A stretch of 64,000 bases of DNA from Proteiniphilum acetatigenes DSM 18083 (GTDB taxonomy: Bacteria > Bacteroidota > Bacteroidia > Bacteroidales > Dysgonomonadaceae), in the NCBI RefSeq assembly GCF_000380985.1, contig NZ_KB905696.1, positions 62,001-126,000 of the forward strand, written 5' to 3'. The translations under genes and the position numbers were made by a program. The notes under the pieces are model-generated. The model worked only from the letters and a program-made list of their open reading frames with translations, was not told the DNA's origin and did not search any database. Shown here piece after piece: positions 11,035 through 17,784 of this stretch (position 1 is its first letter; each line of letters begins with the position of its first letter).

Positions 11035-11129
11035 ATTTAGTCCCAACTGATGCACCACTCTCATCTCATGATTTATCATCCATTTTATCATAAATTTAAA
11101 AAACAGCATCACCTATTCACAGAATTAAA

Positions 11130-11137
11130 TATTTTTG
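11130..11137 (+). promoter_or_regulatory. -7 element for the 7TM AraC regulator
   Basis: TATTTTTG fits TAnnTTTG, 21 bases before the ATG at 11158. No -33 box is obvious. Confidence 0.4.
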
Positions 11138-11157
11138 TATGACAAATATCTCTGCAT

Positions 11158-12288
11158 ATGAATTTATTTGAACCTGTGGCATTCTACTATATATTATCAT
11201 TTGCGACCTCTTCCGTCATCGTGGTATTAGCCGCAATGTTATCAGGCATACATATCCCATCAGATAAAAGGCTTAACAATTTTCGTTCTGCAAGAAATTT
11301 CCTGTCTCTTTCCTACTTTGTACTGGGCATATCCGGTTTCGTCAGTTTTTTCACGCAACAAGAGGCGGAAGATAAAATCCTGCGGGCTTCCTCTACCCTG
11401 ATTATTGCGTCTTATCAGGCCCTGTTCTTCACCTATACCATATTGGCTTTAATACAACCGCTTTTTATCAAACGAAAAGTGATATTAGTGCAATTAGGTA
11501 TTATTACTTTAGCAGGTATCCTTTTATTACTTGCTTTATCGTTACTTCCCCATTCAACATTCCTTATACTCCTGTATATTGCGGTGGCAGGTTATTTCCT
11601 TCAGATTTCCTGTTATGCCCATACATTCAGGTTAAAATACAAAGCATGTTTGGATTCGCTGGAGGAATACTACGAAGAAGACGAGCGTGCCCGTTTACAC
11701 TGGGCCGGCGTTTGTTTTTATAGTGCTTTGGGGATCGGGATACTTGCCCTGGTATCCTTGTTTATGAATCTTTATTTTCATGCCTTATTTTCCATTATCT
11801 ATACCATTTACTACATCTATATGGTGGGTAGGATGTATAATTACCAGATAGATTTTCAATTCGCAATTCCTGTTATAACCCGAAGTGAAGATATGGAAAA
11901 GCCTAAAGAGGCAGATAATGATGTGACATCCGCTCACCTGACGGAAAAAAGTGAACAGTTCAGGAGTATTTTAGCACAATGGGTGGCAGACAAGAAATTT
12001 ACGGAGAAAGATATCAGCGTCGAAGAAATAGCCGAATCACTGGGTATAAACCATAATTTCCTGCAATATTATTTCAGGACCTATATGCAGACCGATTTTC
12101 GCACATGGCGCTCAGGGCTGCGTATCAGTGAAGCACAATCCATACTCAGAGACAATCCCGAAATATCACTCGAGAAAGTGCGCGAACTGGTCGGGTTTAA
12201 TCACCGGGCGAACTTCCATCAACAATTTCAAAAGATTACAGGATTAACCCCTACAGAATACAGACAGCAAAAGTCAAAAGAATCATAA
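11158..12288 (+). CDS. Membrane-embedded AraC-family regulator (multi-TM sensor)
   Basis: 376 residues. The first ~235 are hydrophobic, with about six or seven predicted transmembrane helices (for example FYYILSFATSSVIVVLAAML and ILLLLALSLLPHSTFLILLY). After a charged linker comes an AraC/XylS DNA-binding domain (about 275-372): two HTH units, ISVEEIAESLGINHNFLQYYF and LEKVRELVGFNHRANFHQQFQ, ending with the family signature GLTPTEYRQ. A membrane sensor directly fused to AraC HTHs must bind DNA at the membrane. It precedes a second, differently built membrane AraC protein on the same strand. Ligand unknown. Confidence 0.85.
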   Translation: MNLFEPVAFYYILSFATSSVIVVLAAMLSGIHIPSDKRLNNFRSARNFLSLSYFVLGISGFVSFFTQQEAEDKILRASSTLIIASYQALFFTYTILALIQPLFIKRKVILVQLGIITLAGILLLLALSLLPHSTFLILLYIAVAGYFLQISCYAHTFRLKYKACLDSLEEYYEEDERARLHWAGVCFYSALGIGILALVSLFMNLYFHALFSIIYTIYYIYMVGRMYNYQIDFQFAIPVITRSEDMEKPKEADNDVTSAHLTEKSEQFRSILAQWVADKKFTEKDISVEEIAESLGINHNFLQYYFRTYMQTDFRTWRSGLRISEAQSILRDNPEISLEKVRELVGFNHRANFHQQFQKITGLTPTEYRQQKSKES

Positions 12289-12376
12289 CTCTCCCTTTTC
12301 GTCACTTATTTTGTTATTTTTCTGGGTGTATACTGAAAAATAACAAGGAATAAAAAAACATTTCCTGTAAAATAAA

Positions 12377-12384
12377 TAAATTTG
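12377..12384 (+). promoter_or_regulatory. -7 element for the TPR AraC regulator
   Basis: TAAATTTG fits TAnnTTTG, 84 bases ahead of the chosen ATG (12468). This suggests that the second regulator is also expressed from its own promoter. Confidence 0.4.
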
Positions 12385-12467
12385 CCATAGACACGATCAA
12401 ATACATATAGGGGAAATCTATAATCACAGATTAACATATATTGCATAAATGTTATATCCGCAATAGA

Positions 12468-13994
12468 ATGAGGTGCAATTACAGGGCATTTATATCTCTT
12501 TTTTTATTTTTCCGACTGTTGTCTTTTCCGGCTTTCACACAGGAGGGATTGACACACACTAAGGATTCATTACTTAATGTTATTCCTTCGCTAACGGGAG
12601 AAGAAAAATTGAATGCTTACGACAGGCTACATACAATTTATATGGATAACCTGTTCGACGATGCTTCATTGGAGGATTTTTTTGCTCTGTCAACCGAATA
12701 TGCAACGGAAGCACGTAATCAAAACGCCACTAAGCAGCAGGGGGATATTATGCTTAATAACCTGATTGCCAATTTACGTATGAATCATTTTGATGAAGTA
12801 GATAAAAATATAGATAACACACTGGCATTTCTCAAAGAACATGCACTTACAGATGCAATGTATATAGCTTATAAACAACAGATCCTCAGTTATTGCAGGA
12901 GAGGGATGTATGCCGAATTATGCAATATGTTGCAGGCCACCGGACGTTTCGATGAGTTTTTTGATATGGCCGGACAGACTGAAGAGCTTCTGGAAAAACT
13001 TAGCACGGAAGATAAGCACAAAGACCACAATACTGATAAGATGAATTTATGGACGCTATATGCTTTTGCCTACAACTCCAAAGGTGAATATGACAAAGCA
13101 GAGGCTTATTGCAACCGGATAGACAGCCTGCATGGGCGCGATGCCGTATCACTGGGAAACATCACCTATCTGCATTCGCATATATGGGAGGCAAGGGGCG
13201 ATTATTCAAAGGCATTGGCATATATCAACAAAGCCATTGAAACAGATCCCACTTATACTTATGCGCGGTTTACCAAAGTAAGGATTTTATCACGTATGGA
13301 AAACGCGCCTTTGACCTGGGCCGAAACCGAAGAAACAGTGGAATACATCGACTCACTGCGTTGTATCTCATATGACAGGCAACTTGACGAACTTCGCACC
13401 CAATATGAGGTGGATAAGCACATAGCAGAAAAAGAAAGAGTACGCAACTTTATGTATTTCGCTCTTGCCGGATATATCCTATTAATCATTACACTCGGTA
13501 TATGGATCTATTATAACCGTCAGATCACAAAGAAAAATAAAGCTTTGGTAAAACAGATAAAAGAGCTCCAGACCCAACATGAGAGGGCAGAAACAGAATT
13601 ACTCAATAAGACCAGCTTCGGGATAGAAGATACCGATAACCACCTTTGCCCTGAAACACGGAAAGATCAACTCTGCATGGCTATCCGTGATGTGCTGCTT
13701 AAAGAAAAGGCATACCGGGACCCGACCATAACCCGTGATCACCTGAGTAAACGTTTAGGCAGTAATAAGGATCTGTTCATAGACGCTTTCCAGTATTGTT
13801 TTGGCATGTCATTCCCTGAATATTTAAATTTTCTTCGGCTGAAGGATGCCATCCCCTTGCTTGAAGGTTCGGATCTGACCATAGAAGAGATCTCCGAAAA
13901 GGTGGGTTTCGGGACAGTACGCACTTTCCAACGCCAGTTCCAGTCCAGATACAATATGTCTCCCAAAGACTATCGCAAAGCAGCAATCGCATAA
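12468..13994 (+). CDS. TPR-sensor, membrane-anchored AraC-family regulator
   Basis: 508 residues from ATG 12468; the longer frame starts with TTG. Order: signal peptide or first anchor (ALFLFFRLLSFPAFTQ-type), a periplasmic helical region with TPR-like repeats (AYNSKGEYDKAEAYCNRID, YLHSHIWEARGDYSKALAYINKAIETDP), one TM helix at about 332-352 (FALAGYILLIITLGIWIYY), a coiled-coil linker, and a C-terminal AraC domain (ITRDHLSKRLGSNKDLF, then LTIEEISEKVGFGTVRTFQRQFQ, ending MSPKDYR). This architecture occurs in Bacteroidales next to surface-protein genes. The next downstream promoter holds a direct repeat suited to an AraC dimer, so it likely controls the 14.3-18.1 kb genes. Confidence 0.85.
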   Translation: MRCNYRAFISLFLFFRLLSFPAFTQEGLTHTKDSLLNVIPSLTGEEKLNAYDRLHTIYMDNLFDDASLEDFFALSTEYATEARNQNATKQQGDIMLNNLIANLRMNHFDEVDKNIDNTLAFLKEHALTDAMYIAYKQQILSYCRRGMYAELCNMLQATGRFDEFFDMAGQTEELLEKLSTEDKHKDHNTDKMNLWTLYAFAYNSKGEYDKAEAYCNRIDSLHGRDAVSLGNITYLHSHIWEARGDYSKALAYINKAIETDPTYTYARFTKVRILSRMENAPLTWAETEETVEYIDSLRCISYDRQLDELRTQYEVDKHIAEKERVRNFMYFALAGYILLIITLGIWIYYNRQITKKNKALVKQIKELQTQHERAETELLNKTSFGIEDTDNHLCPETRKDQLCMAIRDVLLKEKAYRDPTITRDHLSKRLGSNKDLFIDAFQYCFGMSFPEYLNFLRLKDAIPLLEGSDLTIEEISEKVGFGTVRTFQRQFQSRYNMSPKDYRKAAIA

Positions 13995-14076
13995 AGTTAC
14001 AATGTCAATTATATTGTTCAGCAATTTGATTACCTGAAAAACACAGACATATACAGTTTATATACAGGCACATATC

Positions 14077-14108
14077 AATTGTCGCATTTTCCGGACGAAT
14101 TGTCGCAT
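14077..14108 (+). promoter_or_regulatory. Direct-repeat operator candidate (two AATTGTCGCAT copies)
   Basis: Exact 11-mers at 14077-14087 and 14098-14108, 21 bases start-to-start (two helical turns). The second ends 20 bases before the -7 element, so it covers the -33 position, where no TTTG box exists. This is the layout of an AraC-activated promoter. The regulator gene ends 82 bases upstream. Confidence 0.55.
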
Positions 14109-14128
14109 GGCTTTTGGGGTCTCCGAAA

Positions 14129-14136
14129 TATATTTG
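14129..14136 (+). promoter_or_regulatory. -7 element of the peptide/fimbrillin-like operon
   Basis: TATATTTG matches TAnnTTTG exactly. The missing -33 box suggests activator dependence on the adjacent repeats. Confidence 0.55.
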
Positions 14137-14303
14137 TGCCACTAAAAAATCATTCATTAAAGTTAGTCGCTTTGAGTTTCCTTCACCCCTCGATTTCCAA
14201 AGCCAATTTAGGGGAAAACAGCGCGAGCCGTCCGGAGATTCCCAAAAGATGAAATAAGCGTAAACTATAACAATAATTAATTCCACTATTTAACTAAAAA
14301 ACA

Positions 14304-14453
14304 ATGGAAACAAATCAATGCAATCCTGCCGGAGAACAATACACTCCGGCATACGAAAAACCATCTATCGAAATTATCAAAATGGAAATGGAAGGCATCC
14401 TCTGCACACCTGAAAGATTATATGTTTATGAAAGCGAAAGCGGAAGATATTGA
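14304..14453 (+). CDS. Small protein, 49 residues, unknown
   Basis: ATG 14304 to TGA 14451-14453. It reads METNQCNPAGEQYTP, then PSIEIIKMEMEGILCTP. The pattern of Glu/Pro-rich start, SIEIIKMEMEGILC and short tail is one I associate with short Bacteroidales proteins encoded at surface-protein loci, but I cannot name a family. No classical signal peptide is present; a single Cys falls in GILC. It is the first frame after the promoter and overlaps the start of the next frame by 32 bases. Confidence 0.55.
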   Translation: METNQCNPAGEQYTPAYEKPSIEIIKMEMEGILCTPERLYVYESESGRY

Positions 14454-14991
14454 AATTGGAGAAGAGAGCGGCGGCGCTATCAACCTCCGGTTCAAACACC
14501 TTTCGTCAGTAGCGCGATTCCATATCATAGAGAATGAAGAGGCTCCCATAGAAGGCTACTTGAGTGGCTTGACACTACGAGCATTGGATTACGCCGGTCT
14601 CATTCATCCACTTCCATCCAATACTTTCCCCTTCTTCCCGGTGGAGGCTTACCTGGAAGAAATGGATGACGATTCGCTCACCCCCATTGAGCCATCCAAA
14701 CAAACCAATCTGCATGTTTTCGGTGATCTATCCTTTGTAGATAAAGGAACCCATAGGGAAATAGATTTCTTTGTGCCGATTTCACCAACAGGCGTACCCT
14801 CCGATTTGGCAAACCACAGGTTAACGTTTGAAACTCAAATTGTAACTCAAACTGAGACAGGCACTAATTACTCACAAGATAGGCTTGGAACCTACTTCGG
14901 ATTATCGTTCAACAATCAGCTTTCATTTATGCCAAAAGGGTTTGAAGCAGGGAAAAGCTATTACTTTAATTTAAAAACAAGCGTATATTAA
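14422..14991 (+). CDS. Fimbrillin-like (Mfa-like) protein, N-terminally truncated
   Basis: 189 residues from ATG 14422 (or Met3 at 14428). The segment LRFKHLSSVARFHIIENEEAP followed by the L-x-L-x-A strand and the end FEAGKSYYFNLK matches the H-x-L-S-x-x-x-F and aGKtYtf-l patterns of fimbrillin-like domains. Normal members begin with a lipoprotein signal and an N-terminal sandwich, about 300 residues in all. Here the start lies inside the preceding 49-codon gene and there is no signal, so the protein looks like the C-terminal half of a fimbrillin. It may be a remnant produced by recombination, or a cytoplasmic protein of another kind. It is 66 bases ahead of the next gene. Confidence 0.5.
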   Translation: MFMKAKAEDIEIGEESGGAINLRFKHLSSVARFHIIENEEAPIEGYLSGLTLRALDYAGLIHPLPSNTFPFFPVEAYLEEMDDDSLTPIEPSKQTNLHVFGDLSFVDKGTHREIDFFVPISPTGVPSDLANHRLTFETQIVTQTETGTNYSQDRLGTYFGLSFNNQLSFMPKGFEAGKSYYFNLKTSVY

Positions 14992-15057
14992 CTTCTGAAA
15001 CCGGCTTAAAAGCCAACTATGCCCTCAATATTTTTAATAATTTAAAGTTTATCCATT

Positions 15058-16458
15058 ATGACACAAGAACAAGAAAAGCAACTGCTCGAAGCAATCTATG
15101 ACCGCCTTTTTGATGCGGTCACCTACCAACCGCAAGGAGGTAAAAACCCGTTTACGGAAGATGAGACATTTATCCATTTTTCAAAAAACGCCGCGGTGGA
15201 TGTGAAATCGTTTGCTAACCCGAGAACACCGTCCAATCCTTTGGGCGATCAGAAAACATCCGAAGAGTTTGCACGGATGGTCGATCAGATTTCGCCACTC
15301 ACACTGGAATGGGAAAATTCGAACAGCCCGCTATCCGAAACATTTGCCAATATTGTCAATAGTGCAAATGCCAACACACAACCCGATGAAAAGGCAAAGG
15401 ATATGTATGAAAAGGCATATAACTATCTGCATCCGGTAATCAAGGAGGTGAATCCCTTCACAGGTGAGGAAACAACAAGCGTGACAGATTCTCAAGACTA
15501 TATTACATATCAAAAGAATATAGATGATTACGTAAATGCTACGGGGAAATATCGTGATGAATACAATAAATATCTGGCGAAGTTGGAAAAAGGGAAGAAA
15601 AATGCCGATCGCGAGTGGCAGGCAAGTGAACCGAAGCTGGCTAATGATATAAAAAGGGCTTTACAAAATATTACTGCCGGGAACGGCAAATATGTTGAAC
15701 AGGCTCTCCAGATTATGGAGACAACCGTAAATGACGGAATTCGTGTGGCTCTTACCAAAGCACAGGAAGCGGTAAAAGATGACAGATGGATCGCCTCTTC
15801 CCTGGGGTTAGTTAACAAATGGCTGTTTTCCTATCCTTCACCGGCAAACTGGACGGACGATAAGAACCTGAATTTTACAGAACTCGAAATCAGCGGGGGA
15901 AATACCAAACAAAGGTCAAAAAGTACGGAACACAGATTCGGTGTGGACACAACTGTAAATTATGGGCTATGGAGGGTCAGAGCCTCGGCAGAGGGTAATT
16001 TTGAACATAAGAATAGCAGTACCGACACGGATAGCCTCTCGATTTCCTGCAAAATTGCCAAAGTAAATATCATGCGTCCGTGGTTCAACGAGTCCCTATT
16101 CAGACTACCTTCCTGGTCCACCAATTTAGTAAAGACGAAAGGCGGCATCTCGAACGGTAAAATAGACACTTCCAATAAGGCAGGCTATTTGCCGATGTAT
16201 CCCGTGGCATTCATCATAGCCAAGGATATCAAAATAAGGGCCGAATTCTCACACGAGGATGCGGAATTTATTAAGCAAGCGGTAACCGGAAGAGCTTCTG
16301 TAGGGTTCGGCCCATTCAGCATCGGCGGCTCGTACGGATATGGGAAGACTGAAGAAAAGCTCAATTCAGATTTTCAAAATGGAACAATCAAAGTACCCGG
16401 TATGCAGATTATCGCATGGGTAAGCCGTGTGGTTCCATTCTCACCACAGGAAGTATAA
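15058..16458 (+). CDS. Unrecognised protein A, coiled-coil plus beta-rich C-terminal domain
   Basis: 466 residues; I recognise no named family. No signal peptide or TM helix is seen. Residues 1-100 are polar and Asn/Pro-rich; about 105-245 are helical and charged (YRDEYNKYLAKLEKGKKNAD, likely coiled coil). From about 265 a beta-rich domain shows strong signposts: FTELEISGG, VNIMRPWFNESLF, KGGISNG, GYLPMYPVAFIIAKDI, FGPFSIGGSYGYG and a terminal MQIIAWVSRVVPFSP. The same signposts, in the same order but weaker, occur in the next gene, so the two are distant homologues over this domain. Position behind an AraC-controlled promoter suggests an induced two-protein complex. A hairpin terminator follows. 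Confidence 0.8.
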   Translation: MTQEQEKQLLEAIYDRLFDAVTYQPQGGKNPFTEDETFIHFSKNAAVDVKSFANPRTPSNPLGDQKTSEEFARMVDQISPLTLEWENSNSPLSETFANIVNSANANTQPDEKAKDMYEKAYNYLHPVIKEVNPFTGEETTSVTDSQDYITYQKNIDDYVNATGKYRDEYNKYLAKLEKGKKNADREWQASEPKLANDIKRALQNITAGNGKYVEQALQIMETTVNDGIRVALTKAQEAVKDDRWIASSLGLVNKWLFSYPSPANWTDDKNLNFTELEISGGNTKQRSKSTEHRFGVDTTVNYGLWRVRASAEGNFEHKNSSTDTDSLSISCKIAKVNIMRPWFNESLFRLPSWSTNLVKTKGGISNGKIDTSNKAGYLPMYPVAFIIAKDIKIRAEFSHEDAEFIKQAVTGRASVGFGPFSIGGSYGYGKTEEKLNSDFQNGTIKVPGMQIIAWVSRVVPFSPQEV

Positions 16459-16469
16459 GGATAATCAGG

Positions 16470-16510
16470 CAGCATAAAGCCCGTATGAGGTTTTATGCTG
16501 TTTTCTCTTT
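16470..16510 (+). terminator. Hairpin terminator/attenuator between proteins A and B
   Basis: CAGCATAAA (16470-16478) pairs with TTTATGCTG (16492-16500), followed by TTTTCTCTTT. Lying inside the A-B gap, it should reduce transcription of B relative to A rather than end the operon, since no B promoter is obvious. Confidence 0.6.
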
Positions 16511-16530
16511 AAAAACCAGGAAAATAATAT

Positions 16531-17487
16531 ATGCCATCCATATCAATAGCATTCGCGACGGCTTTGTCTGAGAAGTTGGAACAGAAAAGGCCATTATTAC
16601 GGTCGGCGCGGACGGCTAGGGTCCATAAAATCGTACAACTCAACCCTTTCCCCGAGACACTGGATTTGAAACGGTACCGGGAACCAATATCCTCATACAA
16701 CCCAGAAGGCGACTATGGGCCGGCTATTCTTTTGTCTGCTTTGGCAAACCGGATTCCATCGGTAACACCTTTTTTTGAGGATAGTGGCAATTCCCTTACG
16801 AATGTATGGAACAGTTTACTGCATGCCGCCATGCCCCAATCGAAGGAAGACAGTTATACACAGCGTGTACTTACTCAAGCACGGGAAAATTTTACACTAT
16901 CCAAAAAGTCAGGTAGAGCCGGCTTTCCCGACGATTGGTATCTGGTCGAGACAGATCCTTACAATTGGTATGACCTACTATCGGACAAGGCAAACCTGAT
17001 ACATCTGGATATAGACCTGCAAAAAAATGACAGGGAGGAGAACGGAAGCATGGAATTTTTGACCATCAACGGCGTGCAATCCCTTACATGGAATATACTG
17101 GGGAATGACGGGAAATGGAAACCCGTACCTGTTCAGCCCGGAACAGAGATACAGAAAATACAAATGGACGTTTTATTGGTAAATTTCACGAGAAAATGGA
17201 TGAATTACGATGTTTTTTCCACGCAATGGAAAATAAACGGACTGAAAAAGGGCTTCTATTCCTCCGGTGAACTGACAGAAAATGAAGGTATATTTCCCTT
17301 AGTTGTCGAATCTATGCTGGTAGCTACCCACACAATAGTAGATGGAATTATCGACAAAAAAGACCAGATGGTTTTAGCACAGTCCCCTTCGGTTTCATTG
17401 GGAGGCTTTGTTTTGAATGATGCTCCCAGAGCACATATAGCTGGTTATATCAGCCGTTTAATCCCTGTTGCTCCTGCTCTGGAATAA
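16531..17487 (+). CDS. Unrecognised protein B, partner of protein A
   Basis: 318 residues; no signal peptide, TM helix or named family seen. The N-terminus is basic (KLEQKRPLLRSARTARVHK). The C-terminal part mirrors protein A: VNFTRKWMNYDVFSTQW against A's VNIMRPWFNESLF...W, KGFYSSG against KGGISNG, GIFPLVVESMLVAT against GYLPMYPVAFIIAK, SVSLGG against FSIGG, and terminal HIAGYISRLIPVAP against QIIAWVSRVVPFSP. A and B are therefore likely products of an old duplication that diverged strongly, with A gaining (or B lacking) the coiled-coil part. A terminator follows at 17625. Confidence 0.8.
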   Translation: MPSISIAFATALSEKLEQKRPLLRSARTARVHKIVQLNPFPETLDLKRYREPISSYNPEGDYGPAILLSALANRIPSVTPFFEDSGNSLTNVWNSLLHAAMPQSKEDSYTQRVLTQARENFTLSKKSGRAGFPDDWYLVETDPYNWYDLLSDKANLIHLDIDLQKNDREENGSMEFLTINGVQSLTWNILGNDGKWKPVPVQPGTEIQKIQMDVLLVNFTRKWMNYDVFSTQWKINGLKKGFYSSGELTENEGIFPLVVESMLVATHTIVDGIIDKKDQMVLAQSPSVSLGGFVLNDAPRAHIAGYISRLIPVAPALE

Positions 17488-17624
17488 AAAATACAATTGG
17501 AAACTCCCTGTCAATTTATCGAATATATCTGACAATATTTTCCTAATAATTAACAAAAAACAATAGAACAAACAATTACACCAAGGCCATAAAAACTGTA
17601 TTCTCTTTTTTAGTTTAACCTTAC

Positions 17625-17656
17625 AATAGCCGAATATCGTTTCCGGCTATTTTTTA
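17625..17656 (+). terminator. Intrinsic terminator after protein B
   Basis: AATAGCCG (17625-17632) pairs with CGGCTATT (17644-17651), followed by TTTTA. It ends the A-B transcription unit; the small membrane gene beyond it needs its own promoter. Confidence 0.7.
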
Positions 17657-17784
17657 TCACCTATATGATCCCTACACTAAAAAAAATCCGGATTTTACGT
17701 AATTGGATAAACCTTTTACTGAAAAAAGACTCTAACACCAAAATTTTATCTACTTTTATTGCACGATGTATAAAACAAACTCTT

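What the first reader, a model, noticed from the sequence alone, without database searches (positions are those of the whole stretch)
15058..17487. Two adjacent unrecognised proteins share a divergent C-terminal domain
Proteins A (466 aa) and B (318 aa) show the same five signposts in the same order: V-x-x-x-R-x-W-[FM]-N-x-x-[LV]-F; K-G-x-x-S-x-G; G-x-[LF]-P followed by a hydrophobic strand; S-[IV]-x-x-G-G or FSIGG; and a final [IA]-x-x-[IV]-S-R-[VL]-[IV]-P-x-[SA]-P. A also has a coiled-coil region. Neither has a signal peptide, so a cytoplasmic or non-classically exported hetero-oligomer is likely. I cannot name the family.
Basis: partly seen in the sequence, partly recalled or inferred. Interest (0 to 1): 0.78.

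Follow-up and report, generated by a model that had tools for sequence, protein, structure and literature searches.

The report
Undescribed long-short bacterial protein pair
Two neighbouring genes encode a long and a short version of the same undescribed protein; the pair recurs side by side in scattered, unrelated bacteria, in some of them next to a cell-wall-cutting enzyme, which suggests (but does not prove) a two-part membrane-perforating machine.

Summary
A (15058-16458, 466 aa) and B (16531-17487, 318 aa) are homologous over nearly all of B, not only at the C-terminus (profile-profile E 3e-38). B lacks A's middle (about residues 110-230) and two Ser/Gly-rich segments. Neither has a significant match in Pfam, NCBIfam, PHROGs or PDB sequences. 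A-type genes occur in 8 of 395 Bacteroidota genomes (own included), 2 of 398 Pseudomonadota (search centre included), 36 of 148 Chryseobacterium and 4 Hyphomicrobiales plasmids, mostly with B beside A; A and B distances correlate (r 0.85). In 6 of 22 hand-distinguished contexts, not the window's, the pair adjoins a peptidoglycan hydrolase without a hydrophobic leader. An RNA stem-loop often lies between A and B (17 of 25 gaps). In the window's genome the pair is on an accessory insertion of about 6.6 kb. Best reading: a two-component beta-hairpin pore-forming pair that works like CDCL/complement or holin-endolysin systems but failed their sequence definitions. Family and pairing are shown; pore formation is inferred, because structure prediction could not be completed.

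The parts
15058..16458 (+). A, long subunit, 466 aa: shared N-terminal part (about 34-109), middle part present in A only (about 110-230, probably helical, inferred), shared C-terminal part with two Ser/Gly-rich segments
   Evidence: no significant family or PDB sequence match
15916..16029 (+). Segment H1 of A (residues about 287-324), S/G/T/N-rich, alternating polar/apolar around an aromatic tip (GLW); proposed first membrane hairpin
   Evidence: not seen in B
16063..16101 (+). Core motif VNIMRPWFNESLF of A (residues 336-348)
   Evidence: W342 invariant in the 16 rows of A10
16273..16386 (+). Segment H2 of A (residues about 406-443) around GFGPFSIGG; proposed second membrane hairpin
   Evidence: G418, P419, F420, G423, G424 invariant in 13 A-type rows; B-types keep a short version of the strand without the S/G-rich extension
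16467..16503 (+). RNA stem-loop between A and B (about 15 pairs), terminator-like; proposed to lower B relative to A
   Evidence: 4 terminator-like sites found against 4.3 expected in shuffles, so the scan alone is no evidence; z -3.55; 17 of 25 A-B gaps z <= -3 against 19 of 97 control gaps
16531..17487 (+). B, short subunit, 318 aa, whole-length homologue of A without the A middle and without the S/G-rich segments
17179..17217 (+). Core motif VNFTRKWMNYDVF of B (residues 217-229)
11158..12288 (+). AraC-type regulator (376 aa) on the same insertion; possible regulator
   Evidence: HTH_18 E 2e-14; position; regulation of A-B inferred only
12441..13994 (+). TPR-AraC regulator (517 aa) on the same insertion; possible regulator
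   Evidence: TPR and HTH_18 E 8e-16; position; regulation of A-B inferred only
11035..17784 (.). Accessory insertion, net about 6.6 kb (two regulators, a 189-aa ORF, A, B) between ferritin and the TraB-side genes; edges approximate
   Evidence: absent in 6 of 6 same-genus genomes examined; junction compared with one of them, G015

Best explanation
A and B are the long and short subunits of an undescribed two-component protein family that most likely perforates membranes. Proposed steps: (1) A and B are made as soluble proteins, A in excess because a stem-loop after the A gene lowers transcription of B. (2) They assemble through their homologous bodies; B, which lacks the hairpin segments, would seed, cap or aim the assembly. 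(3) In many A subunits, segments H1 and H2 form beta-hairpins that insert together as a beta-barrel. (4) In lineages with an adjacent leaderless peptidoglycan hydrolase, the lesion lets that enzyme reach the wall, as in holin-endolysin lysis; the window's copy has no such neighbour and would act by perforation alone. Shown: homology, pairing, correlated distances, hydrolase neighbourhood in part of the contexts, excess of RNA structure between A and B, accessory insertion. Inferred: assembly, insertion, pore, target membrane, stoichiometry. Whether the target is the producer's own membrane or another cell's is open; the mostly missing signal peptides lean towards acting from within or release by lysis.
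For: A-B homology with the S/G-rich segments in A only. H1 and H2: 45-46% S/T/G/N against 29% in whole A, and polar/apolar alternation beyond shuffles (z 4.0, -5.2, 6.5, 3.8 for the four strands; 14 of 17 rows matched each tip pattern). Porin_4 is the commonest weak Pfam hit among A-types, 3 of 16, best E 0.0023. Pairs across Bacteroidota and Pseudomonadota. A and B distances r 0.85, 16 loci after dropping three near-duplicates, 0 of 5000 permutations. Hydrolases beside the pair: PG_binding_1+Muramidase type in 18 of 18 Chryseobacterium loci that have the pair, of 19 fetched from that genus, in 3 of 3 other positive genomes of the window's genus (homology tested for one) and in L024; TIGR02594/CHAP+PG_binding_1 in L025 and PG_binding_1+CHAP in L042; Hemopexin with a sub-threshold Amidase_2 in L036. 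Seven such proteins plus one recognised by eye have no strongly hydrophobic N-terminus (12-residue maximum 1.26). RNA structure between A and B: 17 of 25 gaps z <= -3 against 19 of 97 control gaps and 5 of 17 gaps after B.
Against: No structure could be predicted, so the hairpins are a sequence reading. No significant match to any known pore-former. In 16 of 22 contexts, the window included, no hydrolase was found beside the pair; not every neighbour was scanned, and L034 and L016 lie near contig ends. The Chryseobacterium loci share the same upstream neighbours, so they count as one lineage. The alternation test used offsets chosen by eye, rows are related, and one H1 row (L083) is in fact its second segment. 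Outside Chryseobacterium the stem-loop excess is 7 of 9 gaps, p 0.015; L036 and L031 lack it, as do 6 of 16 Chryseobacterium gaps at z <= -3. Topology is not uniform: L007 A and B, L042 B and L043 B have hydrophobic N-termini, the L083 A looks leader-bearing, and the OmpA-like neighbour in L008 has a leader. Some loci have an A-type without a recognised B (L008, L016, L027, L082, L083). An assembly with no membrane role is not excluded.
Confidence: 0.4

Rival explanations
1. Secreted or lysis-released antibacterial weapon: A+B open the outer membrane of a competitor and the hydrolase, where present, digests its wall; like CDCL killing but with different proteins.
For: The architecture (long and short homologues, adjacent) resembles the published CDCL pairs of Bacteroidota (PMC11169675, section 6). 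Scattered distribution and accessory insertion. A few members have hydrophobic or leader-like N-termini.
Against: Window A and most members show no clear signal peptide in a crude scan. The T6SS sheath family PF05943 was found in 2 of 25 A-positive genomes, not in the window's. An immunity gene was not searched for.
Confidence: 0.25
2. Abortive-infection or programmed-lysis effector: a sensor or protease triggers A+B, which lyse the infected cell from within.
For: L024: Peptidase_C14 (E 4e-31) and a Trypsin_2 match below its cut-off, upstream; L023/L031: a DUF4062 protein upstream; L007: TIR proteins about 5 kb away; leaderless hydrolases.
Against: Each of these neighbours was seen in one context; PADLOC had no model for A or B beyond one weak Cas7b hit, E 0.005; none was seen in the window.
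Confidence: 0.15
3. Non-membrane assembly: A and B form a shell, filament or scaffold, and the hydrolase association in some lineages is incidental.
For: No structure and no activity is known; only weak helical matches; 16 of 22 contexts without a hydrolase found.
Against: Association with wall hydrolases of several domain types in six contexts; S/G-rich alternating segments confined to A.
Confidence: 0.2

Closest known systems
CDC-like (CDCL) long/short toxin pairs of Bacteroidota (MACPF/CDC superfamily)
   Same: Two adjacent homologous genes of unequal length, reported in Bacteroides and Chryseobacterium among others (PMC7527733 passages); one partner makes most of the barrel there
   Different: No YGR motif in 33 A/B proteins, no PF01289 hit, no PDB sequence match, mostly no clear signal peptide; the long gene is usually upstream here, while in the first published type the short one is
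Phage holin-endolysin lysis cassettes
   Same: Leaderless endolysin-like hydrolase (PHROGs endolysin for L038 and L042) beside proteins that would open the membrane
   Different: A and B show no transmembrane helix by hydropathy; no relative in 50,697 phage records or in four viral-contig scans; hydrolase in 6 of 22 contexts only
Bacterial gasdermins with protease partners
   Same: L024 has a caspase-like and a weakly trypsin-like gene next to A-B
   Different: One context only; no gasdermin family hit; A-B comes as two homologues

Membership tests
CDCL / CDC (MACPF/CDC superfamily) | F/Y-F/Y-Xn-YGR motif (PMC7527733, passages) | tested here: not met
   0 of 33 A/B proteins, and no YGR at all in them
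CDCL / CDC (MACPF/CDC superfamily) | PF01289 match (used in PMC11169675) | tested here: not met
   Not among the hits of 16 A-type and 11 B-type proteins at E <= 0.1
CDCL / CDC (MACPF/CDC superfamily) | SpII signal peptide (criterion for the pairs in PMC11169675) | tested here: not met
   Crude hydropathy and eye only: not seen in window A or B; one B-type (L043) looks like a lipoprotein
CDCL / CDC (MACPF/CDC superfamily) | Adjacent long and short homologous genes | tested here: met
CDCL / CDC (MACPF/CDC superfamily) | MACPF/CDC fold with helix bundles that become hairpins | not testable with these tools
   Structure prediction interrupted, then switched off
MACPF proteins | MACPF signature (pattern recalled, from no call) or Pfam MACPF match | tested here: not met
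   0 of 33 by regular expression; no Pfam MACPF hit
Phage holin-endolysin cassette | Adjacent endolysin-like hydrolase without leader | tested here: inconclusive
   6 of 22 contexts; not found beside the window's pair
Phage holin-endolysin cassette | Small membrane protein with transmembrane helices | tested here: not met
   Best 19-residue hydropathy mean 1.74 over 33 A/B proteins
Phage holin-endolysin cassette | Found in phage genomes | tested here: not met
T6SS effector | Producer has a T6SS | tested here: not met
   PF05943 in 2 of 25 A-positive genomes, not in the window's (the control rang in E. coli only)

The most novel reading that the evidence does not exclude
A widespread non-phage lysis system: soluble A and B subunits, made in unequal amounts through an intercistronic stem-loop, assemble a beta-barrel lesion that admits a leaderless wall hydrolase, so that a complement-like pair does the job of a holin. 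The family would be a new pore-former fold or a MACPF/CDC branch beyond sequence recognition.
Probability: 0.25. Interest if true: 0.85.

Novelty: new variant of a known kind. Interest (0 to 1): 0.6.

Why it matters
If right, this is an unnamed family of two-component membrane attackers shared across phyla: the window's Bacteroidia genome, Chryseobacterium, Hyphomicrobiales plasmids and an intranuclear parasite of mussels (Ca. Endonucleobacter MAG). It would link beta-barrel pore formation with wall digestion outside phages. Even without the mechanism it is a co-inherited gene pair without a significant match in any library tested here, with a long/short division that makes assembly and stoichiometry directly testable.

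Tried and rejected
Family libraries: Pfam, NCBIfam, PHROGs, PADLOC and PDB sequences gave no significant match for A or B; single weak hits (MIT, APG6_N, BAR_3, RcGTA_tape, HAUS8 at E 0.011, Cas7b at 0.005, NrS1-1_pol-like_head) were treated as chance.

CDCL/MACPF membership was rejected at sequence level. Phage origin was not supported in the collections searched. T6SS delivery was judged unlikely.

A clean split of all A from all B on one tree was looked for and not found: L006 A and B group together and several deep branches have low support. The parts that do mirror each other are window/L035, L037/L034 and L031-L033.

Muramidase PF11860 elsewhere in the window's genome: no match, but the control rang in no genome, so absence is not shown. 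Repeats at the insertion edges: none convincing.

Stem-loop test: the first comparison used 17 of the 30 gaps measured; that subset held 16 of the 19 gaps with z <= -3 and is therefore biased. It is superseded, which listed 33 gaps, 25 of them within 40-260 nt (8 out of range). Not listed there: L007, L033, L037, L041 and loci without B.

The profile used to mark family members was built from all 25 sequences, two unrelated neighbours included, because an inner script failed; the marking was repeated with separate A and B profiles (which contain the members they find).

Literature: eight searches listed no paper that I recognised as describing this pair. Seen: PMC11169675 outline and section 6; passages of PMC7527733, PMC11952106 and PMC11521996; all others as search listings only.

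Full report
Observation. Both ORFs are intact at the given places. The five signposts are present in both proteins in the same order. BLASTP gives E 1e-6 for the single comparison, Smith-Waterman 98 against at most 64 in 1000 shuffles, and profile-profile comparison of 13 A-type with 11 B-type sequences gives E 3e-38. The aligned range, A 34-466 with B 30-318, shows that B is a whole-length short paralogue; it skips A's middle (about 110-230) and the S/G-rich segments that I call H1 and H2.

No known family. Neither protein reaches a curated cut-off in Pfam or NCBIfam, PHROGs has nothing at E 0.01, and PDB sequence searches with A, the A profile and the B profile give nothing significant. Scanning 16 A-type and 11 B-type proteins one by one against Pfam gave only weak hits, Porin_4 in 3 of 16 being the commonest.

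Distribution. A-type genes were found in 8 of 395 genomes of the phylum, the window's own included; 2 of 398 in a draw around a betaproteobacterial MAG, that MAG included; 36 of 148 in a genus that contains three named Chryseobacterium by matching contig lengths; and 4 of 39 of the window's genus, the window's own included. Protein search of 72,556 plasmids gave 4 records, all Hyphomicrobiales. A degenerate-pattern scan of named genomes returned 13 loci, among them Xanthovirga aplysinae (closest to window A, 66%), three Chryseobacterium, Flavobacteriales and Betaproteobacteria MAGs and Ca. Endonucleobacter. No relative was found in 50,697 phage records or in four viral-contig scans.

Pairing. 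In 16 loci measured, B starts 8 to 147 nt after A in 15 and 1431 nt after it in L037; in Chryseobacterium the gap reaches 403 nt. In Sinorhizobium (L007) the B-like gene comes first and a third, unlisted family member follows. An A-type without a recognised B was seen in L008, L016 (short contig), L027, L082 and L083. In the Chryseobacterium search 34 of 36 positive genomes list more than one match; in G884 the B gene was seen on fetching the locus (L070), and G876 has a single 1,076-aa protein (L082). Pairwise distances of A and B correlate (r 0.85, 16 loci after dropping three near-duplicates, 0 of 5000 permutations). This can reflect joint inheritance as well as contact.

Neighbours. I distinguish 22 contexts by hand: the Chryseobacterium site; the site in the window's genus (L028-L030); L024; L025; L041/L042; L036; and, without a hydrolase found, window; L035; L034; L037; L031; L032/L033; L043; L026; L027; L016; L006; L007; L008; L009; L082; L083. 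The first six have peptidoglycan hydrolases beside the pair: PG_binding_1+Muramidase, TIGR02594/CHAP with PG_binding_1 (L025), PG_binding_1+CHAP (L042) and Hemopexin with a sub-threshold Amidase_2 (L036); a second L036 neighbour looks NlpC-like by eye only. L008 has an OmpA-family neighbour with a leader, not counted. Of 19 loci fetched from the Chryseobacterium genus, 18 have the pair and all 18 have A-B-muramidase with the same upstream neighbours, so this is one lineage. The same triplet lies at another site in three relatives of the window and at a third in L024. Six seed hydrolases, themselves taken from these loci, found homologues among 384 ORFs of 24 loci only beside A-B pairs. Pfam was run on 27 selected neighbours (less three A/B-type rows) and five window neighbours, not on every neighbour, and there is no matched random control. 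Seven recognised hydrolases and the NlpC-like one have no strongly hydrophobic N-terminus.

The window's insertion. In 6 of 6 same-genus genomes examined the segment with the two AraC-type regulators, the 189-aa ORF, A and B is missing; in G015 only 111 nt separate ferritin from the next small gene, against about 6.75 kb here. In G012 the ferritin ORF was not seen either. No convincing repeat was found at the edges.

Hairpin segments. H1 and H2 of A are rich in S, T, G and N and show polar/apolar alternation around an aromatic tip; each tip pattern matched 14 of 17 rows, and the four strands give z 4.0, -5.2, 6.5 and 3.8 against shuffles. Offsets were chosen by eye, rows are related and one H1 row (L083) is really its second segment, so this is indicative only. 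B-types keep a short GPF-like strand but not the S/G-rich stretches.

Stem-loop. Between A and B of the window lies a stem of about 15 pairs (z -3.55; the simple terminator scan found no excess). Of 33 listed A-B gaps, 25 are 40-260 nt long; 17 of these have z <= -3, against 19 of 97 other same-strand gaps and 5 of 17 gaps after B. Outside Chryseobacterium it is 7 of 9, p 0.015. The stems differ in sequence between lineages. This fits partial termination and more A than B; expression was not measured.

Mechanism. The simplest account of a long partner with two insertable segments, a short partner without them, a stem-loop between the genes and leaderless wall hydrolases in some lineages is a two-component beta-barrel pore used with a hydrolase. 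It works like CDCL/complement pairs and like holin-endolysin lysis. It is not a member of either by the features tested. Pore formation was not tested, and structure prediction could not be completed.

Confidence. Family and pair: high. Membrane perforation as described: about 0.4. Action on the producer or on a competitor: open.

Noticed in passing
L024:5978-8215: Caspase-like gene (PF00656), a sub-threshold trypsin-like gene and a 117-aa gene that resembles only part of A (HMM E 8e-11), directly upstream of an A-B set with a muramidase.
   Followed up: partly
L007:5669-6793: A third family member (374 aa) after the Sinorhizobium pair, not in the plasmid gene table; TIR-domain genes lie a few kb further.
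   Followed up: partly
L082:5610-8840: A 1,076-aa protein in a Chryseobacterium-genus genome with an A-like region and no Pfam match.
   Followed up: no
L033:9471-9911: A 146-aa gene (looks like a small heat-shock protein; recalled, not tested) sits between A and B, whereas the near relative L032 has them 14 nt apart.
   Followed up: no
L083:9334-12320: Three consecutive genes with leader-like N-termini follow an A-type gene; none matches Pfam, one is a weak family hit.
   Followed up: partly
14422-14991: 189-aa ORF upstream of A without a Pfam or NCBIfam match; reminds of fimbrillin-like proteins (recalled, untested).
   Followed up: partly
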